Assembly (NCBI RefSeq): GCF_009937765.1
Contig: NZ_CP047089.1
Span: 1,238,272-1,302,271 of the forward strand
Length of the DNA: 64,000 bases
DNA from: Bacillus pumilus
Lineage (GTDB): Bacteria; Bacillota; Bacilli; Bacillales; Bacillaceae
Reading direction: 5' to 3'
Part shown: one piece after another, positions 12,179 to 56,010 of the stretch
Layout of the letters: each line of letters starts with the position of its first letter
How positions within the stretch are numbered: position 1 is the first letter of the stretch
Translations under genes and position numbers: made by a program
The notes under the pieces: model-generated
What the model saw: only the letters and a program-made list of their open reading frames with translations
The model's database searches: none
Told to the model about the DNA's origin: nothing

Positions 12179-12338
12179 AGCGTGTAGATAAACCCTCGCA
12201 TTCGGTTTCAGTCCTGCGTGCTGTTCTTGCGAATGTCAAATTCGCTCCGCTTCAGTACTCGTCCTTTCTAGGGCTGCAAAGGTTTTCTATCACGCTGAAA
12301 AGGAGAAAAAGGGCTAAAACGAAATTCGTTTTAGCCCT
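12179..12338 (+). repeat. Dispersed structured repeat, copy 1
   Basis: This intergenic element of about 160 bases is repeated at 34856 and 55836. Shared blocks in order: AGCGTGTAGA at the start; CGAATGTCAAATTCGCTCCGC in the middle (near 12229); TCACGCTGAA near 12290; then a hairpin, here GGGCTAAAACGAA with TTCGTTTTAGCCC (12311-12337) and a T-run. The hairpin serves as terminator between the convergent 9898 gene and ydzA. The ends AGCGTG and CACGCT are complementary. No open reading frame is conserved among copies. Confidence 0.85.
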
Positions 12339-12344
12339 TTTTGA

Positions 12345-12641
12345 TTAAGCTTTTGTATCATACTGGCGGAGCACCTTATCGTAGGCGAAGTTGCCGAAAG
12401 GAATGAAAGCCGCAAAAAAACCAGCGATCGACCATTTCAAATGCCAGCGAACTTTAAAGGTCACATATGCCAAAATAAGCATATAGATGACAAACAATGC
12501 GCCATGAAGAGAGCCTACAATGGTGACTGCCATCGGAATATCCGCAAAATATTTCAGAGGCATGGCAATTAAAAGAAGGGTTAAAAGAGACATACCCTCA
12601 ATAAAACCCGCCTGTCGAAGACGGCTAATACTTGTATGCAT
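12345..12641 (-). CDS. ydzA: DUF3817 membrane protein YdzA
   Basis: 98 residues with three hydrophobic helices; the FIEGMSLLTLLLIAMPLKY and GSLHGALFVIYMLIL segments are characteristic of the DUF3817 family (often annotated YdzA, and as a C-terminal domain of some transporters). Function unknown. The frame is open to TTG at 12647, but AGGAGG sits 8 bases before the ATG at 12641 and only 2 from the TTG, so 12641 is used. It lacks its B. subtilis neighbour lrpC. Confidence 0.85.
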   Translation of the reverse strand: MHTSISRLRQAGFIEGMSLLTLLLIAMPLKYFADIPMAVTIVGSLHGALFVIYMLILAYVTFKVRWHLKWSIAGFFAAFIPFGNFAYDKVLRQYDTKA

Positions 12642-12777
12642 ATACAAATCCTCCTGTATAAAAGCTAGTTTCTCATCTTCTAATATAAACGAAAGAACGT
12701 CTGGACATGCTGAAATCTACGAAAAATTCAAAATATGTTCATGTAATGCTTAAAAAATGGGAAAAAGGAAAAATCAC

Positions 12778-13452
12778 TTAATCCTTGTTTGTTTCAGAGA
12801 GTACTTGCTTTAAGTGCATCACATCATGTAACAAATGATTCGTCATCGCTTGAACGGCTTCTGTGGAGCGGCGCTCTTTCATTTCAGAATAAATGGCAGC
12901 ATGCTCAGTTTGAATCGTCTCAGCACGCGCCCCGCCGCTAAAATGAAAGATACGGCAAAAATGAATCAGTGCGTTCACATGATTCAATTGTTTATATAAG
13001 CGGTGATTGTGGCTCGCTAAAATGATTTTTTGATGAAAGGCTTCATGTAACTGGACGATGTCTTTAGATGGTAGTTGCTGTTTGATTGCTTCGTCTGCCT
13101 GCGTGAGGACCTGCTCAATTTCATCGAGCTCTTTTTGCGCGGCTTCTTTGCATGCAAGCTCAACAGCAAGCGTTTCTAAGGCAATTCGAATTTGATAAAG
13201 CTCCTCGACATCTTCTTCCGATAACGTATAAATAGAGTAGCCTGACCGATGATCAGCGATCAAGAGCTCATCTTTTTCTAAAAGCCTCATCGCCTCTCTC
13301 ACCGGTGATCGGCTTACACCAAATTGTTTGGCAAGCTGTGTCTCATTGATGCGTTCCCCTGGCTGAAACTGTCCATCAAAAATCATCTGCTTTAACTGTT
13401 CATAAAATTGCATATGGTATGGTGCTGGTCTTTCCATCTCGAATGAATTCAT
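12778..13452 (-). CDS. GntR-family regulator with FCD domain
   Basis: 224 residues. The N-terminal winged helix (about 10-75, INETQLAKQFGVSRSPVREAM cut here to its core RSPVREAM) is followed by an all-helical FCD domain (about 85-215). The conserved LHEAFHQKI and later His residues are those that usually bind a metal or an organic acid. This subfamily responds to carboxylates and sugar acids. It reads away from a transporter remnant and ycsA; a GGTC-type palindrome in front of ycsA is a good candidate operator. Exact effector unknown. Confidence 0.85.
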   Translation of the reverse strand: MNSFEMERPAPYHMQFYEQLKQMIFDGQFQPGERINETQLAKQFGVSRSPVREAMRLLEKDELLIADHRSGYSIYTLSEEDVEELYQIRIALETLAVELACKEAAQKELDEIEQVLTQADEAIKQQLPSKDIVQLHEAFHQKIILASHNHRLYKQLNHVNALIHFCRIFHFSGGARAETIQTEHAAIYSEMKERRSTEAVQAMTNHLLHDVMHLKQVLSETNKD

Positions 13453-13570
13453 TCTGTCATTCCCTCATTTACACATCATCTTTTGTCTCATGTTATCCAA
13501 GTTTTTCCCTCTAGGCAAGCCTGTCTTGGAAAAGTCAATATCGTACAATTCAAGAGAAAAAGGGTGTTCA

Positions 13571-13771
13571 GTGAAAACGAGTGTATATATTTATGGCGTT
13601 CCTATTATTACGATGGTCATTTCAATGATCGTTCTTCATGAAAGATTGACCCTCATGTCAGCACTCGGTACGGTACTGACCTTAGGCGGGCTAGTGCTTT
13701 CGGATAAAAAAAGTGCGAGGAGGAAGAAGGAGAAACCCTCGATGCCTTTCCAGAATAAACAGGCGCTTTGA
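13571..13771 (+). pseudogene. Remnant of an EamA/DMT-family transporter (3' end)
   Basis: About 60 residues remain: SVYIYGVPIITMVISMIVL, then HERLTLMSALGTVLTLGGL and a basic tail. This is the last pair of helices of a ten-helix EamA permease, with the typical HE-L-T/G-ALG pattern. The frame upstream of 13571 has no transporter sequence, so about four fifths of the gene is gone. It lies next to the divergent GntR gene, a usual pairing for DMT exporters and their regulators. It could still make a two-helix peptide (GTG 13571), but decay is more likely. Confidence 0.7.
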
Positions 13772-13787
13772 TCAAAAAAGTGCCTTT
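13761..13787 (+). terminator. Terminator of the transporter remnant
   Basis: AGGCGCTTT pairs with AAAGTGCCT (one G-U), followed by TTTAT. It isolates the remnant from ycsA. Confidence 0.6.
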
Positions 13788-13792
13788 ATCCA

Positions 13793-13845
13793 TTGAAAGA
13801 ACATGCACTCTCTAGTAAACTCAAATAAACGGTCGACCGTCGACC
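13793..13845 (+). promoter_or_regulatory. ycsA promoter with overlapping GntR-type operator
   Basis: TTGAAA (13793-13798), 17 bases, TAAACT (13816-13821) forms a SigA-like promoter. At the expected start site lies the perfect palindrome GGTCGAC-C-GTCGACC (13831-13845). GGTC/GACC half-sites are common for FadR-subfamily GntR proteins, and the GntR gene with FCD domain is 380 bases away. Repression of ycsA by that protein is the inference. Confidence 0.6.
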
Positions 13846-13867
13846 GATAATAAAGGGGGAGAAATGA

Positions 13868-14923
13868 ATGAAGCATGTTTCAATTGCGGCGATACCAGGT
13901 GACGGGGTTGGAAAGGAAGTTGTACCTGAAGCGATACGAGTTTTGGAAGCGGTGTCAGAAGTGCATGGCGGTCTGTCATTTACTTTTCAGGATTTTCCTT
14001 GGAGCTGTGAATATTATTTAGAGCATGGCGAGATGATGCCAAAGGATGGATTGGATCAATTGAAAGCCTTTGACAGCATTTTCTTAGGGGCTGTCGGAGA
14101 TGCCAATTTAGTGCCAGATCACGTATCGCTTTGGGGATTGCTTATTAAAATTAGGCGTGAATTTGAACAGGTGATTAACGTCAGACCTGCAAAACAGCTG
14201 AACGGAATACGCTCACCGCTTTCGCAGCCAAAGGATTTCGACCTTCTAGTTGTCAGAGAAAACGGTGAAGGTGAATATAGTGAAATTGGGGGACGTATTT
14301 ATCAAGGAGAAGATCAGCTTGCTGTTCAAAATGCGGTGTTCTCAAGAAAAGGGACAGAGCGTGCCATGCGTTTTGCCTTTCAATTAGCAGAAAAAAGACG
14401 AAAGCATGTGACGAGTGCAACCAAATCGAATGGGATCGTTCATACCATGCCTTTTTGGGATGAAGTGTTTCAAGACGTAGCAAAGGATTATCCAGAAGTG
14501 ACCGCAGATTCACAGCACATTGATGCACTCTCAGCCTTCTTTGTCACGAGACCTGAGAAATTTGATGTCATTGTGGCCAGTAATTTGTTTGGTGATATTT
14601 TGACGGATCTTGGGGCAGCCATTATGGGGAGTATTGGTGTAGCGCCTGCCGCCAACATCAATGTGAATGGCAAATACCCATCCATGTTTGAGCCTGTACA
14701 CGGATCAGCTCCAGACATTGCGGGAAAAGGAATTGCTAACCCGATCGGCCAAATCTGGACGGCTAAACTCATGCTGGATCATTTCGGAGAGGAAGAACTG
14801 GGCACTCATCTGCTCGAAACCATCGAATCAGTTACAGCAGACGGCTTTTTAACAGCAGACATCGGCGGCGCCTATCAAACGCAAGAAGTCACAAACGAAA
14901 TCATCAAACGATTGAAGAAATAA
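13868..14923 (+). CDS. ycsA: Tartrate / D-malate-type dehydrogenase YcsA
   Basis: 351 residues of the isopropylmalate/isocitrate dehydrogenase family. It has IPGDGVGKEVVPEA at the N-terminus, ENGEGEYSEIGG (substrate loop of the tartrate/malate subgroup), the catalytic KSNG, the metal-binding Asp in NLFGDILTDLGAA, and the NAD-binding HGSAPDIAGKGIANP. The subgroup oxidises D-malate or tartrate with NAD and Mn2+ or Mg2+. GGGGGAG lies 6 bases before the ATG. In B. subtilis ycsA is near the mannitol genes; here it sits between a GntR regulator and topB, a rearrangement. Confidence 0.9.
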   Translation: MKHVSIAAIPGDGVGKEVVPEAIRVLEAVSEVHGGLSFTFQDFPWSCEYYLEHGEMMPKDGLDQLKAFDSIFLGAVGDANLVPDHVSLWGLLIKIRREFEQVINVRPAKQLNGIRSPLSQPKDFDLLVVRENGEGEYSEIGGRIYQGEDQLAVQNAVFSRKGTERAMRFAFQLAEKRRKHVTSATKSNGIVHTMPFWDEVFQDVAKDYPEVTADSQHIDALSAFFVTRPEKFDVIVASNLFGDILTDLGAAIMGSIGVAPAANINVNGKYPSMFEPVHGSAPDIAGKGIANPIGQIWTAKLMLDHFGEEELGTHLLETIESVTADGFLTADIGGAYQTQEVTNEIIKRLKK

Positions 14924-14951
14924 TCCGTCATTAGAACCGCATCTCCACGTC

Positions 14952-14960
14952 TGCTATAAT
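14952..14960 (+). promoter_or_regulatory. Extended -10 promoter of topB
   Basis: TG-C-TATAAT is a perfect -10 with the TGn extension; the -35 (TTAGAA, 18 bases upstream) is poor, as expected for extended -10 promoters. Confidence 0.6.
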
Positions 14961-14995
14961 AAAAGGATGGATAGAAGAAAGAGATGTGAAATCTA

Positions 14996-17182
14996 GTGTC
15001 AAAAACAGTTGTATTAGCAGAGAAACCTTCGGTCGGACGTGATCTTGCACGTGTGCTGAAGTGTCATAAAAAAGGAAATGGCTTTTTAGAAGGAGATCAA
15101 TACATTGTGACATGGGCGCTTGGCCATTTGGTCACACTGGCTGATCCAGAAGGCTACGGAAAAGAATTTCAATCCTGGCGTTTAGAGGATTTACCAATCA
15201 TTCCTGAACCGCTGAAACTTGTGGTGATGAAGAAGACAGGGAAACAATTTCAAGCAGTGAAAGCACAGCTTGCGAGAAAAGATGTCAAAGACATTGTCAT
15301 CGCAACAGATGCTGGACGTGAAGGAGAGCTTGTCGCACGATGGATTCTTGAAAAAGCCCATGTGAAAAAGCCTTTAAAACGACTATGGATTTCATCTGTC
15401 ACGGACAAAGCCATTCAAGAAGGCTTCAAACGTTTAAAAGACGGCAAAGAATATGATAACTTGTATCGCTCAGCCGTTGCGCGCGCAGAGGCAGACTGGA
15501 TTGTCGGCATCAACGCAACAAGAGCGCTGACAACCAAATTCAATGCACAGCTTTCCTGTGGACGGGTGCAAACACCAACGATCGCCATGATATTCAAACG
15601 AGAAGAAGACATTCAGCAATTTCAGCCGAAGCCGTTCTATGGATTGACTGCACAAGTAGATGGACTAACGTTGACCTGGCAGGATGCCAAAACAAAGCAA
15701 AACCGGACATTCCAAGAGAATGTGATCAAAGAGCGTTTGGCAGCCTGCAAAGGCAAACCAGCAGTGGTTGATGCGTTGAAAAAAACAGCGAAAAAAGCGT
15801 TCGCGCCGGGACTGTACGATCTGACTGAATTGCAGCGTGATGCACATAAACGCTATGGCTTCTCAGCCAAAGAAACATTATCTACGCTTCAGCGATTGTA
15901 TGAGCAGCATAAGCTCGTCACATATCCGCGTACAGATTCACGATTTATTTCAGCGGATATCGTTCCTACATTAAAAGATCGTTTAAAAGGAATGAACGTC
16001 AGACCGTATGCGCAGCATGTGAACCGGATTTTACAGTCAGGTGTAAAAGCGCACAAAGGCTTCGTCAATGATGCCAAAGTGTCAGATCACCATGCGATCA
16101 TTCCAACCGAGGAAGAGCTATATCCAGGAGTACTAAGCGATAAAGAGCGTAAATTATATGACCTCATTGCCAAACGATTCCTTGCTGTACTCATGAATCC
16201 TTTCGAGTATGAAGAAACAACGGTCATCACCAAAATAGGCAGTGAAACATTCACAGCAAAAGGGAAAACTGTGCAAGCAGCTGGCTGGAAAGCCGTGTAC
16301 GATGACTCGTATGAAGAAGAGGAATCAGCCGAGGCAGATCAACATTTGCCGCTGCTTTCAGAAGGACAGTCACTAGACGTACGACAGCTGAAAGAAACAA
16401 GAGGAGAAACGAAACCTCCTGCACGTTTTAATGAAGCGACCTTATTATCTGCTATGGAAAACCCAGCGGCATTTATGCAGAACGAGGAAAAGGACTTAGT
16501 GAAAACCCTTGGTGAAACAGGTGGTCTAGGAACAGTAGCAACAAGAGCGGATATTATTGAAAAGCTGTTCAATAGCTTCTTAATCGAGAAAAAGGGCAAA
16601 GACATTTTCATCACCTCGAAAGGAAAGCAGTTGCTCTCGTTAGTGCCTGAGGACTTAAAGTCTCCTGCTTTAACAGCAGAATGGGAGCAAAAGCTTTCTA
16701 AAATCGCCAAAGGACAATTGAAGGCTTCTCAATTCATGAGTGAAATGAAATCGTATGCCAAACAAGCCGTATCTGAAATCAAACAGACGAACCAGACCTT
16801 TAAGCATGATAATGTCACTGGTACCCATTGTCCAGACTGCGGTAAACTCATGCTGAAAGTGAATGGAAAACATGGCACAATGCTTGTCTGTCAGGACAGG
16901 GAATGCGGCCATCGTAAAAATGTGGCAAAGAAAACAAACGCACGCTGCCCAAACTGTCATAAAAAGCTCGAGCTGCGCGGAGAAGGCGATGGCAAAATCT
17001 TTGCTTGTGTATGCGGCCATAGAGAAAAGCTGTCTGTCTTCGAAAAACGCAAATCTCAATCCAATCAAAAGAAAGCCAGTAAGCACGATGTGTCTAAATA
17101 TATGAAGAAACAAAAGAAAGTGGAAGAACCCATTAATAACGCACTTGCTGAACAATTAAAGAAATTAAAATTAGATCAATAG
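14996..17182 (+). CDS. topB: DNA topoisomerase III
   Basis: 728 residues, the usual Bacillus TopB length. The N-terminal Toprim domain (LAEKPSVGRDLA; ATDAGREGELVARW with the acidic metal-binding residues) precedes the type IA core with the catalytic Tyr in LVTYPRTDSRF near residue 309. SCGRVQTPT and the C-terminal Cys-rich zinc ribbons (HCPDCGKLM near 610; ARCPNCHKK near 655) complete the protein. It relaxes negative supercoils and resolves single-strand-linked intermediates. GTG start with a weak ribosome-binding site; terminated by the hairpin at 17191. Confidence 0.96.
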   Translation: MSKTVVLAEKPSVGRDLARVLKCHKKGNGFLEGDQYIVTWALGHLVTLADPEGYGKEFQSWRLEDLPIIPEPLKLVVMKKTGKQFQAVKAQLARKDVKDIVIATDAGREGELVARWILEKAHVKKPLKRLWISSVTDKAIQEGFKRLKDGKEYDNLYRSAVARAEADWIVGINATRALTTKFNAQLSCGRVQTPTIAMIFKREEDIQQFQPKPFYGLTAQVDGLTLTWQDAKTKQNRTFQENVIKERLAACKGKPAVVDALKKTAKKAFAPGLYDLTELQRDAHKRYGFSAKETLSTLQRLYEQHKLVTYPRTDSRFISADIVPTLKDRLKGMNVRPYAQHVNRILQSGVKAHKGFVNDAKVSDHHAIIPTEEELYPGVLSDKERKLYDLIAKRFLAVLMNPFEYEETTVITKIGSETFTAKGKTVQAAGWKAVYDDSYEEEESAEADQHLPLLSEGQSLDVRQLKETRGETKPPARFNEATLLSAMENPAAFMQNEEKDLVKTLGETGGLGTVATRADIIEKLFNSFLIEKKGKDIFITSKGKQLLSLVPEDLKSPALTAEWEQKLSKIAKGQLKASQFMSEMKSYAKQAVSEIKQTNQTFKHDNVTGTHCPDCGKLMLKVNGKHGTMLVCQDRECGHRKNVAKKTNARCPNCHKKLELRGEGDGKIFACVCGHREKLSVFEKRKSQSNQKKASKHDVSKYMKKQKKVEEPINNALAEQLKKLKLDQ

Positions 17183-17190
17183 TTCTATAT

Positions 17191-17219
17191 AAACCCATGC
17201 GGAAACGCATGGGTTTTTC
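17191..17219 (+). terminator. Terminator of topB
   Basis: AAACCCATGCG-GAAA-CGCATGGGTTT: an 11-bp stem closed by a GAAA tetraloop, then TTT. Confidence 0.92.
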
Positions 17220-17328
17220 AATGTTATCAAGCATATTGACATGTTGTTTTTCTGAAAATGGGAATAAATATGCGAAAAGACTCGTAATTTGGTATAAAAT
17301 ATTTATTTAAATTTAAACAAAAACGCTC

Positions 17329-17334
17329 TATAAT
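17329..17334 (+). promoter_or_regulatory. Probable -10 element of the ydaJ operon
   Basis: A perfect TATAAT 46 bases before ydaJ in an AT-rich stretch. No convincing -35 is at the right distance, so activation or a non-canonical promoter is possible. Confidence 0.4.
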
Positions 17335-17379
17335 AAATCGTTAGATGTTTAGAGAACGGGGAGTTGAAAGGGGACACGA

Positions 17380-18462
17380 ATGCATACACGCATATATCGT
17401 ACAGCAATTTTTTTACTCATTGTTATTTTACTAGGCGGATGTACCTGGAGGCAGCAGAAAGAATCAGCTGATCCAGTATCACCTCAGCCCGTTTTACCTG
17501 GAGAATATTTCATCACTCACCACTTAATGACAGATCAAGGTTTGATTCGTACCTCCTTTGCAGAGGAGCATATTTACTTATCTGAATCACTTGGGCTTTG
17601 GATGGATTATCTTGTTCGAAAAAAAGACCAAAATTTATTTGATCAACAGTTAGGTGTTTTGCAAGATCAATTTTTATTAGATCATCATCTTCTCAGCTGG
17701 CAAATTGAATCTGAACAAAAAAGTAAAGCCAATGCTTTAGTTGATGATTTACGTGTAGTGTCGGCACTTCAAAAGGCAAATCGTTTGTGGAAGAAGCCAG
17801 CGTATCAATCGACAGCAAAAGAAATCGCTCAAGCGTTAAAAGAAAAAAACATGTACAAAGGCATATTGTCCGATTATTATGATGCATCAACAAATCGTAC
17901 TTCACATACAATCACACTCTCTTATATAGACCCAAAAGCAATCAAAGAATTGGAATCCCTCCACATATTCACGAAACAAATGACCAGCAACCAATTAGCC
18001 ATTCTAAAACAAGCACCGAGAAAAAAAGGATTTTTTCCTAAGTCCTATGACATAAAGAAAAAAACCTATTCATTCGATCAAGAAATCAATATGATCGATC
18101 AACTTTATACAGCTCAACATGCACATCATGCAAAGGTGAATACGTCTGAAATCATGAAATGGCTGAAAACGTCGTTTAAACAAGACGGAAAACTGTACGG
18201 GAGATATAAACTGAGCACTTTGCAACCCTCTGTCACATATGAATCGCCTTCGGTATATGCGCTCGTTATTTTGTATGCCCTTAAACAAAACGAACAGAAA
18301 TTCGCAAAGACGGTCTATCACCGCATGAAAGAGTTACAAACCCAAGATCCTCTTAAGCCTTATTACGGAGGATACATGAACGAAAAAGAGACACACTCAT
18401 TTGATAACTTATTGCCTCTAATTGCAGAAAGGGAGCTTTTAAATGAATCGGTTGTTCAGTAA
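17380..18462 (+). CDS. ydaJ: Exopolysaccharide-operon lipoprotein YdaJ
   Basis: 360 residues. A lipoprotein signal with lipobox LLGGC (Cys21) anchors it outside the membrane. The body carries regularly spaced Trp- and Tyr-containing helices resembling an (alpha/alpha)6 glycosidase fold; B. subtilis YdaJ has been likened to family 8 glycosidases, which suits modification of a secreted polysaccharide, but I see no catalytic signature I can name with confidence. GAAAGGGG lies 6 bases before the ATG. First gene of ydaJKLMN, overlapping ydaK by 20 bases. Confidence 0.85.
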   Translation: MHTRIYRTAIFLLIVILLGGCTWRQQKESADPVSPQPVLPGEYFITHHLMTDQGLIRTSFAEEHIYLSESLGLWMDYLVRKKDQNLFDQQLGVLQDQFLLDHHLLSWQIESEQKSKANALVDDLRVVSALQKANRLWKKPAYQSTAKEIAQALKEKNMYKGILSDYYDASTNRTSHTITLSYIDPKAIKELESLHIFTKQMTSNQLAILKQAPRKKGFFPKSYDIKKKTYSFDQEINMIDQLYTAQHAHHAKVNTSEIMKWLKTSFKQDGKLYGRYKLSTLQPSVTYESPSVYALVILYALKQNEQKFAKTVYHRMKELQTQDPLKPYYGGYMNEKETHSFDNLLPLIAERELLNESVVQ

Positions 18463-22260: not shown

Positions 22261-22264
22261 CAAA

Positions 22265-24411: not shown

Positions 24412-24428
24412 CTCTTTTATAAAAGACC

Positions 24429-24570
24429 AATCGCTGAATCATTTCAATGAGCGGGGGAACCAATTGTGGTGGTAAAGCACCACGTGGGGTGAATCCTTTT
24501 TAGGTAGGGCAAAGTCTCATGCGCCCGAATCCGTCAGCTAACCTCGTAAGCGTTAAAGAGAGCAAAGACC
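24429..24570 (+). ncRNA. c-di-AMP riboswitch (ydaO class) of kimA
   Basis: The conserved core of the ydaO-yuaA leader is visible: GAGCGGGGGAACCA (24449), GGGGTGAATCC (24486), CCGAATCCGTCAGCTAACC (24525-24543) and AAAGAGAG (24555). TCGCT and AGCG at the ends can form helix P1. The class is established as an OFF switch: c-di-AMP binding stabilises the aptamer and allows the terminator at 24590. It lowers KimA synthesis when potassium, and so c-di-AMP, is high. Confidence 0.95.
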
Positions 24571-34023: not shown

Positions 34024-34854
34024 ATGGAGGAAAGAGAGTGGCTAAAAGCACAATTAAAAGAAATTGAAAAGTGGGAGAAAGACCAGCAAAAGGTATGGTT
34101 TTGGGAGAAACTCAGCCGTTTGCCATTTCAAATGCTGGACAAGCTGACGCCTGCCTTTATCCAGAAAAAAATCGGTGTGCTGCTAGATGAAATGGGTCAT
34201 TACATTCAATCAGGCGGTGCCTATTTGACATCAGAAAAAGGCATCATCCATCAATTTCAAAAGAAATGTGCAGATGATTCCATTCAGCGTATAGAAGATA
34301 TAGAAAAAGCGCCAATTGAAATCATGGACGCCATTAGTGAACATATGGGGAAAAATAGGACGAATCTCGCCACGGTACAAGGGGCGACAACGGGTGTCGG
34401 TGGTATGTTTACACTGGCTGCAGATATTCCTGCGGTACTTGGCCTCTCCCTTAAAACATTACAGGATATTGCCGTCACCTATGGCTATGATCCTAAAAAC
34501 AAAGAAGAGCGGGTCTTCATCATAAAATGCTTACAACTGACTTCTGCTGATGTGGTTGGGAAGAAATCGATATTAAAAGAGCTCAGAAGCTTTCATGATT
34601 CAGAAGGGAAACATGAAAACATGTTCTCACAAATCCAAGGGTGGCGTGAGGTAGTCTATAATTACCGAGATTCATTTGGCTGGAAGAAACTATTTCAGCT
34701 TGTTCCCGTAGCAGGGATTTTATTTGGCGCAGTCTCCAACCGCTCACAACTAAAAAGTATTGCCGAAACAGGCATGATGCAATACCGAAAACGAAGAATT
34801 GTCTCAAGATTAGAAGAGATCACCCAGCAAGAACAGAGTGAATCTGGTGCATAA
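34024..34854 (+). CDS. EcsC-family protein
   Basis: 276 residues. The body (about 60-250) matches the EcsC family: GATTGVGGMFTLAADIPAVL near 120 and LVPVAGILFGAVSNRSQLKSI near 225 are typical glycine-rich hydrophobic segments, and the rest is helical and charged. EcsC proteins are linked to, but not required by, the Ecs secretion-related transporter; function unknown. AAGGAGG lies 7 bases before the ATG and TATAAT is at 33977. It ends immediately before repeat copy 2. Confidence 0.8.
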   Translation: MEEREWLKAQLKEIEKWEKDQQKVWFWEKLSRLPFQMLDKLTPAFIQKKIGVLLDEMGHYIQSGGAYLTSEKGIIHQFQKKCADDSIQRIEDIEKAPIEIMDAISEHMGKNRTNLATVQGATTGVGGMFTLAADIPAVLGLSLKTLQDIAVTYGYDPKNKEERVFIIKCLQLTSADVVGKKSILKELRSFHDSEGKHENMFSQIQGWREVVYNYRDSFGWKKLFQLVPVAGILFGAVSNRSQLKSIAETGMMQYRKRRIVSRLEEITQQEQSESGA

Positions 34855-34855
34855 C

Positions 34856-35028
34856 GCGGCATGTAGACAAACCCTTGCATTCGTTGTCAGTCCCGCGTGC
34901 TGGTACTCACGAATGTCAAATTCGCTCCGCGCCACAGTACTCGCCCTTCCTAGGGCTGCAAAGTTTTCATGTCACGCTGAATAGAAGACAAAGGGCTAAA
35001 ATGAAGATTCATTATAGCCCTTTGTTAA
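34856..35028 (+). repeat. Dispersed structured repeat, copy 2
   Basis: Same element as at 12179 and 55836: GCATGTAGACAAACCC start, CGAATGTCAAATTCGCTCCGC block, TCACGCTGAA, and the hairpin GGGCTAAAATGAA with TTCATTATAGCCC (34993-35020). The sequence then continues TTGTTAACAATCTGA, shared with copy 3. It begins 2 bases after the EcsC-family stop codon. Confidence 0.85.
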
Positions 35029-35035
35029 CAATCTG

Positions 35036-41197: not shown

Positions 41198-41222
41198 TAG
41201 TATGAAAATATCATAATAACCA

Positions 41223-41344
41223 CACGCTTAATCCTTCTAAAGGAATGGGGGACCCATGTTTTTGGGGTGAATTTTTCTCTGTTGAGAAAAAAGGACATCT
41301 CTTCGTCCTAACCCGTCAGCTAACCTCATCGGCGTGAAGAGAGT
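41223..41344 (+). ncRNA. c-di-AMP riboswitch (ydaO class) of a dicarboxylate/amino-acid symporter
   Basis: The aptamer core seen before kimA is repeated: GGGGGACCCATG (41247), GGGGTGAAT (41264), CCTAACCCGTCAGCTAACC (41307-41325) and GAAGAGAG (41337). CACGC (41223) and GCGTG (41332) can close helix P1. A terminator follows at 41371. The assignment to the class rests on shared core blocks and spacing with the kimA leader 17 kb away. Expected action: high c-di-AMP switches the symporter gene off. Confidence 0.88.
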
Positions 41345-41370
41345 AAACGGTGGTATATGTAAAGACACGC

Positions 41371-45509: not shown

Positions 45510-45523
45510 CTTCGTTTTACGAT

Positions 45524-47110: not shown

Positions 47111-47124
47111 TGTGAGCAACGAGC

Positions 47125-47152
47125 AGACACTATCCTTAGGTAGTGTCTCTTT
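47125..47152 (+). terminator. Hairpin between ddl and murF
   Basis: AGACACTA pairs with TAGTGTCT around TCCTTAGG, then CTTTTCC. The interrupted T-tract suggests partial termination, which would lower murF relative to ddl. Confidence 0.55.
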
Positions 47153-47191
47153 TCCTTCAAACGTGAAATGAGAAAGAGAGGCGAAAAAATC

Positions 47192-48556: not shown

Positions 48557-48583
48557 AAAGTGAGCGGCAAAGAAGGTGACAGA

Positions 48584-49276: not shown

Positions 49277-49403
49277 TCTATAGAAAAGCGAAAATGTGGC
49301 TAAACTAATATAAATTGAATCCCACTTGTTAAAAATTGCATCATTTTTGTCGAATGAGTGACAAGCCTATGGTACAATAGGAAAGAAAAGGTGGTTGATT
49401 CGG

Positions 49404-49742: not shown

Positions 49743-49762
49743 ATATATCCATTTCTGTCTTG

Positions 49763-49791
49763 TTGAAAAACAAATAGTGTAATGGTAAGAT
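49763..49791 (+). promoter_or_regulatory. Possible cshA promoter
   Basis: TTGAAA, 17 bases, TAAGAT; a leader of about 110 bases would follow. A TATAAT at 49819 lacks a -35 partner. Confidence 0.4.
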
Positions 49792-49828
49792 ATAAGGTAG
49801 GGTAATTCGGGCTTTGTATATAATGGAC

Positions 49829-49855
49829 CTGTCCTTTCGAAAAAGGGCAGTTTTT
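49829..49855 (+). terminator. Terminator-like hairpin in the cshA leader
   Basis: CTGTCCTTT-CGAA-AAAGGGCAG (one G-U pair), then TTTTT, 53 bases before the cshA start codon. It could end the previous transcript or attenuate cshA. Confidence 0.65.
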
Positions 49856-49907
49856 AATGATCATTCACGAGATTACTGAAACAGCAATTAGAAGGAGTTT
49901 GAATAAT

Positions 49908-51398
49908 TTGACTATAACGTTTCAAGATTTTCAATTAAGCGAAAGTCTCATGAAAGCTATTAACCGCATGGGATTTGAAGAAGCAACACCGATTCAAGCG
50001 GAAACAATTCCTCTCGGTCTTCAGAATAAAGATGTCATTGGACAAGCACAAACAGGAACAGGAAAAACTGCAGCGTTTGGTATTCCTCTTGTAGAAAAAA
50101 TTGACCCAGCGTCTCCAAACATCCAAGCGATTATCATTGCGCCAACAAGAGAATTAGCGATTCAAGTATCTGAAGAGCTATACAAAATTGGCCAAGACAA
50201 GCGTGCGCGCGTACTTCCGATTTACGGTGGACAAGATATTGGTCGCCAAATCCGTTCACTCAAGAAAAATCCTCATATCATCGTAGGGACTCCAGGACGT
50301 TTACTCGATCACATTAACCGTCGTACAATGCGTCTTCAAAATGTTGAAACTGTTGTGCTTGATGAAGCAGACGAAATGCTAAACATGGGTTTCATCGAAG
50401 ACATTGAATCGATCCTTTCAAATGTACCAAGTGAACACCAAACACTTTTATTCTCTGCGACAATGCCTGCACCAATTAAGCGCATTGCAGAACGTTTCAT
50501 GACAAACCCAGAACACGTAAAAGTAAAAGCGAAAGAAATGACTGTCTCTAACATCCAACAGTTCTACTTGGATATCCATGAGCGTAAAAAGTTTGATACA
50601 TTGACTCGCCTTCTTGACATTCAATCACCTGAGCTTTCAATTGTCTTCGGCCGTACAAAACGTCGCGTTGACGAATTGACTGAAGCACTTAACCTTAGAG
50701 GTTATACAGCTGAAGGTATTCATGGTGACTTAACTCAAGCGAAACGTATGGTTGCGCTTCGTAAATTCAAAGAAGGTTCAATCGATGTGCTTGTCGCAAC
50801 AGACGTTGCAGCACGTGGACTTGATATCTCAGGCGTAACACACGTGTATAACTTTGACGTACCACAAGATCCAGAAAGCTACGTACACCGTATTGGACGT
50901 ACTGGACGTGCTGGACGTACAGGTATGGCGATGACATTCATCACACCACGTGAAAAAGATATGCTTCGTGCGATCGAGCAAACAACTAAACGTAAAATGG
51001 ATCGTATGAAAGAACCAACACTAGATGAGGCAATCGAAGGACAACAACAAGTAACTGTTGATCGTCTGCGCACAATCATCAGTGAAAACAACTTAAACTT
51101 CTACATGACAGCAGCAGCTGAATTACTCGAAGATCATGATTCTGTCACAGTGGTTGCGGCTGCCATCAAAATGATGACAAAAGAGCCGGATGCAACGCCT
51201 GTTCGTTTGACAGATGAAGCACCAATGGTTTCAAAACGCAATCGCAACAACCGCAGCTCTTCTAAACGTAGAGACGGTGGCGGCGGAGGCGGCTATCGCG
51301 GAAAAAGCCGTTCATCTTACGGTGACAAAAAGCGTTCTTCAAATGACCGCAATCGTTCTTCTAGCGATCGCCGTCAAAAGAAATCTTATAACAACTAA
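49908..51398 (+). CDS. cshA: DEAD-box RNA helicase CshA
   Basis: 496 residues. Motifs in order: Q-motif [73 protein letters not shown] and [12 protein letters not shown] CshA C-terminal dimerisation region (about 370-440) and a basic Ser/Arg/Gly tail follow. It is the main helicase of the degradosome-like network and helps ribosome assembly and cold growth. AGAAGGAG lies 11 bases before the TTG at 49908, which gives the family start MTITFQDF; an in-frame ATG at 49857 overlaps the leader hairpin tail. Confidence 0.96.
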
Positions 51399-51401
51399 TT
51401 C

Positions 51402-51434
51402 AAAAGCGAATCCTTTGCAGGGTTCGCTTTTTTT
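51402..51434 (+). terminator. Terminator of cshA
   Basis: AAAAGCGAA and TTCGCTTTT enclose CC/GG pairs and a TTTGCA loop; T-run of seven or more. Confidence 0.9.
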
Positions 51435-51445
51435 AACAGGTTTCC

Positions 51446-51471
51446 TGAAACTTTTTAGGCTTTCTTTCGTA
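51446..51471 (+). promoter_or_regulatory. SigW-type ECF promoter of ydbST
   Basis: TGAAAC-N16-CGTA is an exact match to the SigW consensus. B. subtilis ydbST is a member of the SigW regulon. Confidence 0.85.
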
Positions 51472-51508
51472 ATATATTGATAGAAAAGTAAGAGAATGGG
51501 GGAAGAAT

Positions 51509-51988
51509 GTGAGAAAACAGCCGCAACGTCAAATTAGTTTAAATGGTTTAAAGGTATGGCGCCTTCAAAATGGAATCATCTCATTGATTTTCTTACTCAT
51601 CATCATTGGGGTATTTGTTGCTAGTTATTATCTTCATTGGCCGTATTGGATTGGTGCCATCCTCACCGGTTTATGGGTCTTACAGGTTGTTTTTGGCATT
51701 TGGCTTATACCGAAAATCCGTCATCGCATCTGGCGTTACGAAGTATTCGAAAATGAAATCGAAATTCAGCATGGGCTCATTCGTGTCACACGTGTGATTG
51801 TACCGATGGTGCGTGTCCAGCATGTCGATACATCACAAGGGCCACTCTTAAGGCGCTACCGTTTGGCTTCTGTTCAAATATCGACTGCTGCCACAGTTCA
51901 TGATATACCGGCGCTAGAATTAGAAGAAGCAGATGAGCTTCGTGATTACATATCTCGTTTAGCAAGGGTGACGGAAGATGATGTCTGA
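51509..51988 (+). CDS. ydbS: Membrane PH-domain (bPH2) protein YdbS
   Basis: 159 residues. Two helices (about 25-70: IISLIFLLIIIGVFVASYYL and WIGAILTGLWVLQVVFGIWL) precede a bPH2/DUF304 domain (about 75-155) with the usual EIEIQHGLIRVTRVIVPMVR and QHVDTSQGPLLRRYRL. With YdbT it helps B. subtilis resist certain antimicrobial peptides. GTG start; overlaps ydbT by 11 bases. Confidence 0.9.
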   Translation: MRKQPQRQISLNGLKVWRLQNGIISLIFLLIIIGVFVASYYLHWPYWIGAILTGLWVLQVVFGIWLIPKIRHRIWRYEVFENEIEIQHGLIRVTRVIVPMVRVQHVDTSQGPLLRRYRLASVQISTAATVHDIPALELEEADELRDYISRLARVTEDDV

Positions 51989-53477
51989 ACCAAAACGTGT
52001 ACATCCAATCTCGATGTTCATTGATTTTATATCAGATGCCGTATCCATGATCAAAAACTTCATTATTCCTTTTTTCGTGCTTATTTTTGTGAACTCGAAT
52101 TCGAGCATTCGTTTTTATGCATTTATCATTCTTGGTGTGCTTCTTTTATGGAAAGCTGTTTTAACCGTTTTAGCATGGAGACGCTTTACCTACCGGATGG
52201 AAGATGATGAATTTCGCGTGGAATCGGGCGTCATCACAAAAAAGAAAAAATATATTTCGTTAGAACGAATTCAAACGGTGAATACAAGTGAAGGTATTTT
52301 CCAGAGGATTTTTGGTTTGGTGCGTGTTCAAATCGAAACAGCTGGCGGAACAGACGGTCCGGAAGTGAGTCTGACGGCGATTACAAAAGCAGAAGCGGAA
52401 CAATTAAAGCAATCGATTTTCAACCGGAAGAAAAGCTTGCAGCAAGAAGAAATGGTGGATGAAAATGGAGGTACCCCACATGATCCTCTGGCAGCACACC
52501 AACCTGTAGAAAAAGAAATCAATGTTTCCTACCGGATGGGGATACCAGAACTGCTTTTGGCTGCGACCACATCAAGCGGGATCGGCGTCATTATTTCTGG
52601 GTGTCTTGCCATTTACACACAAATAGATGAAATTCTTCCTTTGGACGGATTCATCAAGCAGTTTTCTTTTTTAAGTCATGCGAGTGTTGAGATTTATGCG
52701 ATTCTCATATTTATTGCCGTATTGATTGCATGGATTCTTAGTGTTGGGGTAACAGCCCTTCAATATGCGAATTTTAACGCAAAACGAAAAGGGAAAGACA
52801 TCATCATCACAAGAGGGCTCATCGAAAGGCATCAAATGACCATTCCGCTTGCGAGAATTCAAGCAGTGAAAATCAAAGAAAATATTCTTCGTGAACCCTT
52901 TGGTTTTGCGACGGTGATGCTTGTGAGTGCAGGAGGTTCTATTACAGAAAAAGAAACCTCTTCCGTCTTATTTCCACTGATTCGGAAGAAAAAAATCAAT
53001 GAACTGCTCTCTCAATTCACAGATGATTATCATTTGGAGCCAGAATCTGAATTGAAAAAGGTACCAAAGCGTTCACTCAAGCGCTACCTGATCTCTTTCG
53101 GTTTTGTGCCATTACTTGTCGGCGTGATCCTATCTGTTCGTTTTCCGCCATGGGGGTATTTGGCACTCATTCCGCTTCCTCTTGCTTTGGTTTTTGGTTA
53201 TTTAGCTTATAAACAATCAGGCTATACGATCAAAGATCCATTGATTCAACTGACATCAAGAGGCATTGGCAAAACCACTGGAATTGTCTTGAGAAAACGA
53301 ATGCAAAACTATACGATGACACAATCATTCTTCCAAAAGAAAGGCCGAGTGGCGAGTATTCACACCTTTGTGAAATCCTCTGCGTTGCTTGATTCCTTTG
53401 GTGTACATCACCTTGAGGAAGAAGATGCAGCACGTGTAATGGATTGGTATTCGTATGAAAAAAATAAATCTTCTTAA
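51978..53477 (+). CDS. ydbT: Membrane PH-domain protein YdbT
   Basis: 499 residues with several bPH2/DUF304 modules separated by membrane helices: near 70-150 (FRVESGVITKKKKYISLERI and the GIFQRIFGLVRVQIETAGG motif), 265-350 (IIITRGLIERHQMTIPLARI) and 405-490 (DPLIQLTSRGIGKTTGIVLR). Partner of YdbS in the envelope-stress response; molecular action unknown. Ends in a long terminator hairpin shared with the convergent ydcA. Confidence 0.9.
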   Translation: MMSEPKRVHPISMFIDFISDAVSMIKNFIIPFFVLIFVNSNSSIRFYAFIILGVLLLWKAVLTVLAWRRFTYRMEDDEFRVESGVITKKKKYISLERIQTVNTSEGIFQRIFGLVRVQIETAGGTDGPEVSLTAITKAEAEQLKQSIFNRKKSLQQEEMVDENGGTPHDPLAAHQPVEKEINVSYRMGIPELLLAATTSSGIGVIISGCLAIYTQIDEILPLDGFIKQFSFLSHASVEIYAILIFIAVLIAWILSVGVTALQYANFNAKRKGKDIIITRGLIERHQMTIPLARIQAVKIKENILREPFGFATVMLVSAGGSITEKETSSVLFPLIRKKKINELLSQFTDDYHLEPESELKKVPKRSLKRYLISFGFVPLLVGVILSVRFPPWGYLALIPLPLALVFGYLAYKQSGYTIKDPLIQLTSRGIGKTTGIVLRKRMQNYTMTQSFFQKKGRVASIHTFVKSSALLDSFGVHHLEEEDAARVMDWYSYEKNKSS

Positions 53478-53480
53478 ACA

Positions 53481-53527
53481 AAAAATGTCGATCCGCTTCC
53501 TGTTCATAGGAGTGATCGACATTTTTT
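53481..53527. terminator. Bidirectional terminator between ydbT and ydcA
   Basis: AAAAATGTCGATC and GATCGACATTTTT form a 13-bp stem with a 20-base loop. Confidence 0.88.
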
Positions 53528-53533
53528 ATGAGG

Positions 53534-54139
53534 TTAGTAGCGTCTTTTTTTTGAATGGAAAACTAGCGTAAGAGGTGCTAGGAGCATGCCGCCGATCAAT
53601 CCAAATAAGTGAGCCATGATATTGATGTTTGAGTTGACGAACGTCATAATGACAGAGACGGCAAGAATCGTTAAGATCACCTGAGAATTGCCGCGATCCA
53701 TCATATGCGGTTTAAATAGAACAAGGTATAAATAAACGCCAAACAAACCGAAGATCGCACCAGATGCGCCGACATGTACATACTCTAAAGGCTCCACCCA
53801 ATAGGTTCCGAGGTTGCCAATGAATCCTGCACCAAGATAGATAATGAGAAATCGAACCTTCCCAAGCAAATGCTCAAGTGCTGGAACGAATAAGAACAAT
53901 GCCATAGAATTGAACAAAATATGGGTCAGACTTCCGTGAAGAAAAACAGGTGTGATAAGTCGCCACCATTCTCCAGCAGCTACACCATAATTGAAACCGA
54001 CGAGATGGTCGTGACCAAGCTGGATAAGAGGGATAGGAAGCGCAAATAGAAGCCATAAACCAAATTGCAAAGCAAGGATCGTTGTGACGATTGGATATGA
54101 TCTAATAAATTGTTGAAAGCTCTCCGTTCGAATAAACAT
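53534..54139 (-). CDS. ydcA: Rhomboid-family intramembrane protease YdcA
   Basis: 201 residues, six helices. The catalytic Ser126 lies in VGASGAIFGLFG and His177 in NINIMAHLFGLIGG; HGSLTHILFNSMALFLF is the rhomboid H-xxxN region. It should cleave membrane proteins within the bilayer; substrates unknown. AAGGGG lies about 7 bases before the ATG on the minus strand. Divergent from acpS. Confidence 0.92.
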   Translation of the reverse strand: MFIRTESFQQFIRSYPIVTTILALQFGLWLLFALPIPLIQLGHDHLVGFNYGVAAGEWWRLITPVFLHGSLTHILFNSMALFLFVPALEHLLGKVRFLIIYLGAGFIGNLGTYWVEPLEYVHVGASGAIFGLFGVYLYLVLFKPHMMDRGNSQVILTILAVSVIMTFVNSNINIMAHLFGLIGGMLLAPLTLVFHSKKRRY

Positions 54140-54233
54140 AACAAACCCCTTTTGACTAGATAATGGTAAGTTTATAGTAACACGTTTATGAAGAGAACAT
54201 CCAAATTAGTACGAGTATCATAGGAGGTACCTC

Positions 54234-54599
54234 ATGATCAAAGGAATAGGTCTTGATATAGTAGAGATCAACCGGCTCGCACATGTGCTTAGTAGACAAC
54301 CTCGTTTGCCAGAACGAATTTTAACGTTAAATGAACAAGACATCTTTCACGCACTTAGTGAAAAGAGGCAGCTGGAATTTTTGGCAGGACGTTTTGCAGC
54401 AAAGGAAGCTTTCGCCAAAGCATACGGAACGGGAATTGGAAGGCATTTAAGCTTTCATGACATAGAAATCCAGAAAGACGAACATGGAAAACCTTTCATC
54501 AAAAGCGAAAAGACGAAGGACGACCAAGTTCATGTGTCCATCACTCACACGAAAGAATATGCTGCGGCACAAGTTTTAATTGAAAGGTTGTCAAGCTAG
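54234..54599 (+). CDS. acpS: Holo-(acyl-carrier-protein) synthase
   Basis: 121 residues. GIGLDIVEINR (Mg-binding Asp8) and FAAKEAFAKAYGTGIGR (Glu, CoA site) are the AcpS signatures; HVSITHTKEYAAA closes the fold. It transfers phosphopantetheine to ACP in the cytosol. GGAGGT lies 5 bases before the ATG. The stretch to ydcC (54600-54768) shows no gene. Confidence 0.95.
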   Translation: MIKGIGLDIVEINRLAHVLSRQPRLPERILTLNEQDIFHALSEKRQLEFLAGRFAAKEAFAKAYGTGIGRHLSFHDIEIQKDEHGKPFIKSEKTKDDQVHVSITHTKEYAAAQVLIERLSS

Positions 54600-54768
54600 T
54601 CTGCATATTGTTTGTCCCCCCTTCATATATTGGGTAGTGCGATAAGGAAGGGCGAGTTGCTAACAGGCTTTGATGGTTCGCGGTACGCAGTTAACTCTTG
54701 AGGCGTACTGTTAAAGTCAAACAAGCGGTTTCTTCCTTTTAACACAATTAACGAAGGGGTTGAAAAGG

Positions 54769-55776
54769 GTGAGAAAAAGCTTTGTTTTGCTTGTAACGGG
54801 AATCCTTTTTGTACTGATTCTCTCCGCATGCGGTCAAAAATCTCAGAAGGATATCGTTGGAGATTTAAACAAAAAGGCAGAGGAAATGACATCATACAAA
54901 GCCAAAGCAAAAATGACCATTGAGACAGGAAATGACCCGCAGGAGTATCAAGTAGAAATTTGGTACAAAAAGCCGGAACTTTACCGTGTCTATTTAGAAA
55001 ATCCGAAAAAGGATCAGAGTCAAGTCATTTTAAGAAATGGCAATGGTGTGTTTGTGCTGACACCTTCATTGAACAAGAGCTTCCGTTTTCACAGTGATTG
55101 GCCGAATAATAGCAGTCAGGTCTACTTATTTGAGTCACTCGTGAAGGACATTAAAAATGACAGTGCTGCTCAGTTCAAAGCGAAGGATTCAAAGTATGTG
55201 TTCGAAACCAAAACCAATTATCAGCACAACCAAATGCTGCCTACCCAAGAGATTACCTTTCATAAAAAAACAATGGCGCCTGCCAGTGTGAAAGTGCTGG
55301 ATAGCGACAAAAAGCCAATGGTGAAAGTGGAATTCTCTCACTTTGAATTCAATAAATCCTTTTACAAAGATGCATTTGATGAGAAGAAAAACATGACACT
55401 CTCTCAAATGGATGTTGCCACAAGTGCAGACCCATCTGACAGCTTCGCAGTGAAAACGCCAGTTGACATGCCAGAGGGTGTGAAAAAGATGGAAGAGAAA
55501 GAAATGATGACAGATGCCGGGAAGCGTTATGTGATGACGTATGGCGGAAAGAAATCCTTCACACTCATTCAGGAAAAAGCGAGAGTTGCTGAAGCATCTA
55601 CGCCTGTGACAATGAACGGCGAGCCAGTCGACCTTGGCATGACAGTTGGGGTTCTGACAGATCAATCCCTTTCATGGACATCTGACGGAGTGGACTACTT
55701 GATTTCTTCAAGTGATCTATCGAAGGAAGAGCTCTTGATGGTTGCAAAGAGTGTAGAAGGCCAGTCAGCTAAATAA
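54769..55776 (+). CDS. ydcC: Outer-surface lipoprotein YdcC (LolA-like)
   Basis: 335 residues. A lipoprotein signal with lipobox ILSAC (Cys near 20) and a LolA/LolB-like beta body (KMTIETGNDPQEYQVEIWYK, and so on). In B. subtilis ydcC is sporulation-associated; function unknown. GAAGGGG lies 9 bases before the GTG at 54769 but abuts the alternative TTG at 54760, so GTG is used. Repeat copy 3, bracketed by two near-identical hairpins, follows. Confidence 0.88.
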   Translation: MRKSFVLLVTGILFVLILSACGQKSQKDIVGDLNKKAEEMTSYKAKAKMTIETGNDPQEYQVEIWYKKPELYRVYLENPKKDQSQVILRNGNGVFVLTPSLNKSFRFHSDWPNNSSQVYLFESLVKDIKNDSAAQFKAKDSKYVFETKTNYQHNQMLPTQEITFHKKTMAPASVKVLDSDKKPMVKVEFSHFEFNKSFYKDAFDEKKNMTLSQMDVATSADPSDSFAVKTPVDMPEGVKKMEEKEMMTDAGKRYVMTYGGKKSFTLIQEKARVAEASTPVTMNGEPVDLGMTVGVLTDQSLSWTSDGVDYLISSSDLSKEELLMVAKSVEGQSAK

Positions 55777-55806
55777 ATATCTCAGGCGAGAGCCTTAGAA
55801 ATTGAA

Positions 55807-55835
55807 AGATCAGCCTTATTGCAAGGGCTGATCTT
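55807..55835 (+). terminator. First copy of the ydcC hairpin (no T-run)
   Basis: AGATCAGCC pairs with GGCTGATCT around a TTATTGCAAG loop. It equals the 29 bases at 56011 with one mismatch, but the T-run is replaced by the start of repeat copy 3, so it probably no longer terminates well. Confidence 0.75.
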
Positions 55836-56010
55836 CAGCGTGTAGACAAACCTTCGCATTCGTTGTCAGGTCTGCGCGCCGGTGCTCACGAATGTCAAAT
55901 TCGCTCCGCGCCAGTGCTCGGCCTTCCTAGACTTCAAAGGTTTTCTATCACGCTGAAAAGAAGACAAAGTGCTAAAATAAAGATCATTTTAGCACTTTGT
56001 CAACAATCTG
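55836..56010 (+). repeat. Dispersed structured repeat, copy 3
   Basis: Same element as at 12179 and 34856: CAGCGTGTAGACAAACC start, CGAATGTCAAATTCGCTCCGC, ATCACGCTGAA, and the hairpin GTGCTAAAAT with ATTTTAGCAC (55979-55996), then TTGTCAACAATCTG as in copy 2. A G-C pair of copies 1 and 2 is replaced by T-A here. The element is bracketed by a 29-base direct repeat. A 73-codon plus-strand frame inside has no counterpart in the other copies. Confidence 0.85.

What the first reader, a model, noticed from the sequence alone, without database searches (positions are those of the whole stretch)
12179..56010. Three copies of a structured intergenic repeat with a compensated base pair
Elements at 12179-12338, 34856-35028 and 55836-56010 share blocks (GTGTAGA, CGAATGTCAAATTCGCTCCGC, CACGCTGAA) and end in a hairpin. 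That hairpin starts GGGCTAAAA in copies 1 and 2 but GTGCTAAAA in copy 3, with the partner changing from TAGCCC to TAGCAC. A G-C to T-A swap that keeps the pair implies selection on RNA or cruciform structure. All copies lie on the same strand, each right after a gene's 3' end. Termini AGCGTG/CACGCT are complementary in copies 1 and 3. It may be a miniature mobile element domesticated as a terminator, or a 3'-UTR RNA.
Basis: partly seen in the sequence, partly recalled or inferred. Interest (0 to 1): 0.75.

Follow-up and report, generated by a model that had tools for sequence, protein, structure and literature searches.

The report
Tiny transposon that duplicates transcription terminators
The repeat is a small passenger transposon of Bacillus that inserts beside the hairpin that stops transcription after a gene and leaves a full copy of that hairpin on each side, so the neighbouring gene can keep its stop signal.

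Summary
The three window elements belong to a family of about 60 copies in this 3.77-Mb genome, with matches in 38 of 44 genomes of the genus. The full element is about 175 bp. In 46 of 52 copies examined it sits next to a terminator hairpin that stands again, whole, on its other side (19-34 bp), against 12 of 2652 mismatched flank pairs. Relatives without the insertion carry one hairpin. Its ends resemble those of a resident 1.5-kb insertion sequence with an IS1182-family transposase, and 39 of 41 such IS copies examined duplicate a hairpin the same way. So it is most likely a non-autonomous IS1182-type element (MITE) whose target duplication is set by hairpin shape. Covariation is strong, but a sense-RNA role is not singled out. 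At window copy 1 the element's own hairpin has replaced the gene's terminator. A genome of B. subtilis 168 length holds ten copies, much like the recalled '190-bp element' of Kunst et al. 1997. A related IS, IS1272, deletes the hairpin instead (passages read).

The parts
12178..12352 (+). Element copy 1 (old insertion; native terminator hairpins lost on both sides)
   Evidence: R1 match G000:1250449-1250623, 169.4 bits; orthologous insertion series in relatives
12306..12342 (+). Tail hairpin of copy 1 followed by TTTTT: now in the place of the upstream gene's terminator
   Evidence: Sequence; the same tail hairpin with T-run in 9 of 16 loci read at this site (L349, L350, and 7 with the core deleted); native hairpin alone in 3 of 16; native hairpins on both sides of an element in 1; 3 did not align
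9898..12168 (+). ORF (756 aa) that ends just before copy 1
34857..35035 (+). Element copy 2 (left hairpin copy lost)
   Evidence: R1 match G000:1273128-1273306, 168.2 bits
35036..35058 (+). Native terminator hairpin kept on the right of copy 2, followed by T-run
   Evidence: Sequence; the same hairpin alone, without element, in 11 of 17 loci read
34024..34854 (+). ORF (276 aa) that ends just before copy 2
55807..55835 (+). Left copy of the duplicated terminator hairpin of copy 3 (29 bp; abuts CAGCGTG, no T-run)
   Evidence: one mismatch to the right copy
55836..56010 (+). Element copy 3: CAGCGTGTAGACAAA ... TTTGTCAACAATCTG, tail hairpin with the compensated T-A pair
   Evidence: R1 match G000:1294107-1294281, 214.8 bits
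56011..56039 (+). Right copy of the duplicated terminator hairpin of copy 3, followed by a T-run to 56044
   Evidence: a single copy of this hairpin without element in 16 of 16 loci read from relatives
54760..55776 (+). ORF (338 aa) upstream of copy 3

Best explanation
The elements are a MITE (a transposon without a transposase gene) moved by transposases of one clade of the IS1182 family. Shown: parent-like IS and MITE have similar ends (CAG-N3-GT-N-GACAAA), lie at hairpins of the intrinsic-terminator kind, and are flanked by the whole hairpin on both sides; in the genus the duplication is 15-40 bp, and for the MITE its limits coincide with the base of the stem. [quoted passage not shown] The outer copy keeps the T-run, so transcription should still stop after reading through the element, which would make terminators safe harbours. 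The element's own terminal hairpins are probably kept for transposition. At some loci, such as window copy 1, the tail hairpin later replaces the host terminator.
For: 46 of 52 copies in this genome have duplicated flanks; mismatched flank pairs reach the same score in 12 of 2652. All 46 duplications fold as hairpins (mean -12.9 against -2.3 kcal/mol shuffled), with a median of 0 unpaired bases at both ends; the right copy has more T after the stem in 45 of 46. Empty sites with one hairpin: copy 3 in 16 of 16 loci read, copy 2 in 11 of 17, copy 1 in 3 of 16. At copy 2's terminator an element lies in the opposite orientation in G022, between both hairpin copies. End pattern: 102 hits in the genome, control 5, including IS-length pairs. 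Transposase: NF033551 at 477.8 bits, cut-off 270. IS copies: 39 of 41 examined (58 over cut-off listed) have a duplicated hairpin, identical in 32; 38 of the 39 have a T-run after or an A-run before. Outside the genus 13 of 23 IS1182 loci analysed have one: 13 of 15 with the short transposase type, 0 of 8 with the long. The duplicators form one clade. Other genomes' MITE copies read: 7 of 10, 15 of 15, 11 of 11; control 1 of 1260.
Against: Six of 52 copies, including window copies 1 and 2, lack the duplication. Relatives explain this by erosion at copy 1; four of the six were not traced. No transposition was observed. MITE and IS ends are alike, not identical. Of the 38 genomes with element matches only 12 have an IS1182 match over the cut-off; 26 do not, the B. 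subtilis-sized G035 among them, and G009 has the IS but no element match. MITE orientation is biased with replication (125 to 47 over 7 genomes, ori and ter assumed) while the IS is not (30 to 25), which the model does not predict. IS1272 of the same family deletes the hairpin. Two IS copies (L190, L198) and two short-type loci outside the genus (L404, L405) show no hairpin duplication.
Confidence: 0.86

Rival explanations
1. A structured 3'-UTR RNA (or RNA gene) with a host function, spread behind many genes and kept by selection on its fold.
For: 45-pair model: 19 pairs with both-sided changes against 7.5 +/- 1.2 in shuffles, 0 of 500 as high; all 11 tail pairs and 4 of 8 core pairs have such changes. 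The core is recognisable in the B. subtilis-sized genome.
Against: Copies are polymorphic between genomes, occur in both orientations at one terminator, and end in transposon-like ends with target duplications. A.C mismatches 63 against G.U 33 is not what selection on the sense RNA would be expected to leave. No Rfam family reaches its gathering score over the elements; the best low-threshold hit over copy 3 is Leu_leader, E 0.00055, 28.3 bits against a gathering score of 50.
Confidence: 0.1
2. A retroelement of the group IIC intron kind that homes to terminator hairpins by reverse transcription.
For: The same target class: group IIC introns insert just after terminator hairpins (recalled).
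Against: Whole-hairpin duplication is not the group II pattern (recalled); elements with like ends carry a DDE transposase of the IS1182 family, not a reverse transcriptase.
Confidence: 0.02
3. Compensated changes in the tail hairpin are templated by palindrome correction during replication, not kept by selection. (This concerns the cause of the compensation and is compatible with the best explanation.)
For: Near-perfect stems with both-sided changes at 11 of 11 pairs and few one-sided steps (4 G.U and 11 A.C cells in helix 5).
Against: A core helix with arms further apart (pairs 42-83, 44-81 and 45-80 of A1; 42-161, 44-159, 45-158 of A2) covaries too, which templated correction explains less easily.
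Confidence: 0.3

Closest known systems
'190-bp element' of Bacillus subtilis 168 (Kunst et al. 1997; recalled, paper not held)
   Same: In G035, whose length 4,215,606 equals that of strain 168 (recalled), the model finds 10 distinct places, 9 co-oriented with the fork, the exception at 737371. The recalled report has ten copies, fork-oriented but for the most distal one at 737,062, and compensatory changes.
   Different: I recall five copies on each side of the origin; here it is six and four, so either my recall or the match is not exact. The recalled report suggested a structural RNA; the transposon-like ends, terminator target and hairpin duplication (7 of 10 by score, two more eroded) are added here.
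IS1272 / TnSha1 (IS1182 family, Staphylococcus)
   Same: Same transposase family; targets inverted repeats (passages of PMC5678879), several of them confirmed terminators (passages of PMC4923244).
   Different: IS1272 and TnSha1 delete all or part of the hairpin and leave no duplication; here the whole hairpin is duplicated. PMC5678879 drew stem-loop duplication as a possible pathway b only.
IS1182 family in general
   Same: NF033551 match far over cut-off. Some members are said to target palindromes (Siguier et al. 2015, as cited in the passages).
   Different: ISPse1 of the same family is listed with the value 4 in what I read as the duplication column; long-type loci here show no hairpin duplication, 0 of 8.
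RUP, SPRITE and other bacterial MITEs
   Same: Short repeats of mobile origin, often intergenic; SPRITE is described as terminator-like (passages of PMC10969869).
   Different: That review's main text has no occurrence of IS1182 or Bacillus, and the passages seen mention no hairpin duplication.

Membership tests
MITE of the IS1182 family | Terminal inverted repeats like those of an autonomous IS | tested here: met
   CAGCGTGTAGACAAA / CAGATTGTTGACAAA against IS ends CAGCTTGTAGACAAA / CAGACCGTAGACAAA; pattern 102 hits, control 5. Similar, not identical.
MITE of the IS1182 family | Autonomous relative with transposase of that family in the genome | tested here: met
   Window's genome: two copies without stops, 480.1 and 477.8 bits, cut-off 270. 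But only 12 of 38 element-bearing genomes have one over the cut-off.
MITE of the IS1182 family | Same kind of target duplication as the IS | tested here: met
   46 of 52 MITE copies; 39 of 41 IS copies
MITE of the IS1182 family | Shown to be mobilised by that transposase | not testable with these tools
   Needs a transposition assay; insertion polymorphism only
B. subtilis 190-bp element | Ten copies, fork-oriented but for one near 737 kb (recalled) | tested here: met
   10 distinct places in G035, 9 fork-oriented, exception at 737371; genome unnamed, identified by length from recall
B. subtilis 190-bp element | Five copies on each side of the origin (recalled) | tested here: inconclusive
   Six in one half and four in the other; the original text was not available
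IS1272-type stem-loop replacement | Target hairpin deleted, no duplication | tested here: not met
   Whole hairpin duplicated
Group IIC intron | Inserts after a terminator without target duplication; RT-encoding parent (recalled) | tested here: not met
   Duplication present; elements with like ends encode a DDE transposase
Described RNA family (Rfam 15) | Score over a gathering threshold | tested here: not met
   No gathering-level match over the three elements; low-threshold scans of copy 3 and of one G035 copy give nothing over a gathering score
3'-UTR regulatory RNA | Stable transcript with an effect on the host gene | not testable with these tools
   No transcript data on hand

The most novel reading that the evidence does not exclude
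A whole clade of IS1182 transposases chooses and measures its target by shape: it cuts at the two 5' feet of an extruded hairpin, so the target duplication is exactly the stem-loop, whatever its length or sequence. Intrinsic terminators, presumably the commonest such hairpins in these genomes, have thereby been colonised genus-wide by the clade and its MITEs, which keep them working by duplication and sometimes replace them with their own hairpin. The fork-biased orientation of the MITE hints that the hairpin is captured on single-stranded DNA at replication forks.
Probability: 0.5. Interest if true: 0.8.

Novelty: new variant of a known kind. Interest (0 to 1): 0.66.

Why it matters
It gives a mobile-element origin to a Bacillus repeat that, as I recall, was first described as a possible structural RNA. 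It supplies many natural cases of whole stem-loop duplication, a pathway drawn only as a possibility in the 2017 IS1272 paper. Duplications that follow the stem, not a fixed length, point to structure-guided target cutting by a DDE transposase, which can be tested directly in vitro. It also shows a route by which genes exchange their terminators, and each hairpin pair works as a tag for tracing IS-mediated rearrangements.

Tried and rejected
Rejected: the complementary AGCGTG/CACGCT as the true termini (they close an internal stem; the right end lies about 55 bases further). Rejected: a strand-specific 'after a gene's 3' end' rule. Among non-convergent neighbours 11 copies run with and 9 against the flanking genes, and both orientations occur at one terminator. 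Rejected: a described RNA family. Rejected: group IIC intron (DDE transposase instead of reverse transcriptase; duplication present). My first reading, that a T-run to the right shows strand-specific targeting, was dropped: these hairpins commonly have an A-run before and a T-run after, so they can read as terminators on both strands.

Literature: nine searches; the repeat in Bacillus, and IS or MITE insertion at terminators; structural RNA and forks; the 190-bp names (0 papers). IS1182 with terminator or palindrome. IS1272. IS1182 with Bacillus and MITE. The listings I saw did not show this family, but they were cut (for example 20 of 10,193 papers, 20 of 1,144, 15 of 96), and only papers under open licences are held. 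The Kunst paper and the Siguier 2014 review were not held. Papers seen as passages only: PMC5678879, PMC4923244, PMC3281130, PMC10969869.

Limits: per-genome counts are capped at 62 scored candidates. Fork orientation assumes ori at base 1 and ter at half length, and for G018, G021, G022 and G028 uses only the copies listed. In one search the copies read were 10 in G035, 15 of the G036 copies, and one best-scoring copy each from 11 other genomes. Rows dropped: L014 (no element) from 53 places; L217 (two adjacent IS); 4 of 27 loci too short, where a score of 36 or more was taken by eye as duplication. In one search the genus is represented by 11 IS copies picked by hand, the tree was midpoint-rooted, and the ORFs taken for L404 and L401 may not be the transposase (internal stop in the match; long branches). 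Of the 30 loci I read 16 (L140-L155) besides the own one; of 20 asked for, 17 besides the own one; of 20 asked for, 16 besides the own one. One search printed lengths only. At copy 1, 3 of 16 loci, and at copy 2, 2 of 17, did not align at the flank and say nothing.
Full report
OBSERVATION. The window lies in a single-contig genome of 3,774,609 bases. BLAST with copy 1 lists 45 matches, with 40 of 83 candidates scored, and the 21-base core with up to 3 mismatches finds 53 places against 0 for the reversed pattern. I took 5 kb around all 53; 52 hold the element and one, L014, does not. A covariance model from 48 copies (A1) gives 134 hits in the genome at E up to 0.01; many are antisense hits to the tail hairpin, and 60 score 68 bits or more. 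The full element is about 175 bp, CAGCGTGTAGACAAACC...TTTGTCAACAATCTG.

THE DUPLICATED TERMINATOR. Reading the copies with their flanks shows that the sequence left of the element is, as a rule, a hairpin specific to that locus, and that the same hairpin stands again right of it. With a set threshold, 46 of 52 copies have it; pairing the left flank of one copy with the right flank of another gives it in 12 of 2652 pairs. The duplication is 19-34 bp (median 24) and identical in 23 of 46. It folds better than shuffled sequence in 46 of 46, and its limits are the base of the stem (median 0 unpaired bases at each end). The right copy is followed by a T-run (mean 5.1 T in 8 bases, against 1.9 after the left copy; more in 45 of 46). 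The six without it are L011, L021 (window copy 1), L022 (window copy 2), L034, L035 and L039.

EMPTY SITES. For window copy 3, all 16 loci read from relatives have the flanks and one hairpin but no element. For copy 2, of 17 loci read 11 have the bare hairpin, one (G020) an element in the same orientation, one (G022) an element in the opposite orientation between both hairpin copies, one (G042) an opposite and eroded one, one (L384) a remnant, and two did not align. Elements thus lie at the same terminator in both orientations, which most simply needs at least two insertions. For copy 1, of 16 loci read three keep the native hairpin alone (L356, L362, L363). L351 has the element between two native copies. 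L350 has the left native copy and a tail hairpin that runs straight into TTTTT. L349 and the window have lost the native hairpins, and seven have lost the core but kept the tail hairpin with the T-run; three did not align. There the tail hairpin has taken over the terminator's place.

WHAT MOVES IT. The pattern CAGNNNGTNGACAAA occurs 102 times in the genome (control 5) and includes facing pairs 1503 and 1504 bases long. These are insertion sequences with an IS1182-family transposase without stops: NF033551 at 477.8 and 480.1 bits against a cut-off of 270, with Pfam DDE_Tnp_1_6 and DUF772. Both are flanked by duplicated 22-bp hairpins. Over the genus, 37 of 44 genomes have some IS1182 match and 13 have one over the cut-off; 58 such matches are listed. 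I fetched 40 stretches and analysed 39 plus the two above. In 39 of these 41 the IS is flanked by a duplicated hairpin (15-40 bp by alignment, identical in 32). A T-run follows the right copy in 33 and an A-run precedes the left copy in 29, one or the other in 38 of 39; L190 and L198 are the exceptions. Against this link: of the 38 genomes with element matches, 26 have no IS1182 match over the cut-off, and G009 has the IS without the element. In 299 genomes drawn from the order, 94 have a match over the cut-off. Of 27 loci outside the genus, 23 were long enough to analyse and 13 show the duplicated hairpin. Split by transposase match length, the short type (about 1300 bases) has it in 13 of 15 and the long type (about 1500) in 0 of 8. 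In a midpoint-rooted FastTree of 38 proteins all 24 hairpin duplicators fall in one group of 26, printed support 1.0, with one not assessed (L400) and one negative (L405) inside. So this mode of insertion appears to mark a clade of IS1182.

STRUCTURE. On 87 distinct rows from the window's and other genomes (A2), 97.4% of cells of the 45-pair model pair. Nineteen pairs have both-sided changes (shuffled 7.5 +/- 1.2; 0 of 500 as high; slid controls 3-6), among them all 11 pairs of the tail hairpin and 4 of 8 of the core helix. The alignment was fitted to the model, which leans towards it, and the shuffles ignore relatedness. A.C mismatches (63 cells) outnumber G.U pairs (33), so a role of the sense RNA is not singled out. 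The IS ends look able to form hairpins too (ends shown; not folded), so the simplest reading is that end hairpins serve transposition. This is inference.

RELATION TO KNOWN THINGS. It has 15 matches at 10 distinct places, nine of the ten co-oriented with the fork, the exception at 737371. Copy number and the exception agree with the 190-bp element of Kunst et al. 1997 as I recall it. I also recall five copies on each side of the origin, while here it is six and four; the paper is not held, so the identification rests on recall. Seven of these 10 copies pass the duplication threshold and two more show eroded hairpins. In G036 it is 15 of 15 read, and in one copy each from 11 other genomes 11 of 11; control 1 of 1260. 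Passages of two papers on IS1272 and TnSha1 say that these IS1182 members go to inverted repeats, several being terminators, and delete all or part of them. [quoted passage not shown] The elements here look like that pathway.

NOT EXPLAINED. MITE orientation follows replication in 125 of 172 copies of 7 genomes, while IS orientation does not (30 of 55); ori and ter were assumed. For the nine copies that run against both flanking genes the nominal fork agrees in 6, local GC skew in 2, so the bias is unsettled.

VERDICT. A new variant of a known kind: a MITE family of a terminator-duplicating IS1182 clade. The identity is well supported. The cutting mechanism is inferred.

Noticed in passing
L064 (genome 501302), L065 (968866), L066 (1974641), L067 (2250255), L069 (2437338), L070 (3505509, 3505757), L071 (3589468), L072 (3630759): Hairpins at single IS ends match, as reverse complements or copies, hairpins at far-off IS ends, so the tags trace IS-mediated rearrangements; mean GC skew of the three loci sampled at 0.5-1.0 Mb is reversed, in line with an inversion there.
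   Followed up: partly
L041 (genome about 2877240-2877387): Next to a MITE's right hairpin lies an IS end that, after a short remnant, runs into what looks to me like reverse-strand 16S rRNA sequence (recognised from recall); a rearrangement or assembly join.
   Followed up: no
L191, L205, L227, L024, L041: MITE and IS ends stand next to each other around the same hairpin, so a duplicated terminator seems to be used again as a target.
   Followed up: partly
L123, L127, L132, L136, L138: Five of the copies read in G035 and G036 carry an insert of roughly 50-60 bases, hairpin-like, in the core; the recalled 1997 report also mentions an insert in three copies.
   Followed up: no
L064 (503-753), L070 (710-958); L067 (1806-2056): L064 and L070 hold 249-251-bp stretches with both ends of the IS, like short deletion derivatives; L067 pairs one such end with the end of another IS type.
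   Followed up: no
window 24422-24567 and 41215-41348 (+), 8928-9013 (-): Two c-di-AMP riboswitches and a BsrC sRNA match over their gathering scores.
   Followed up: no
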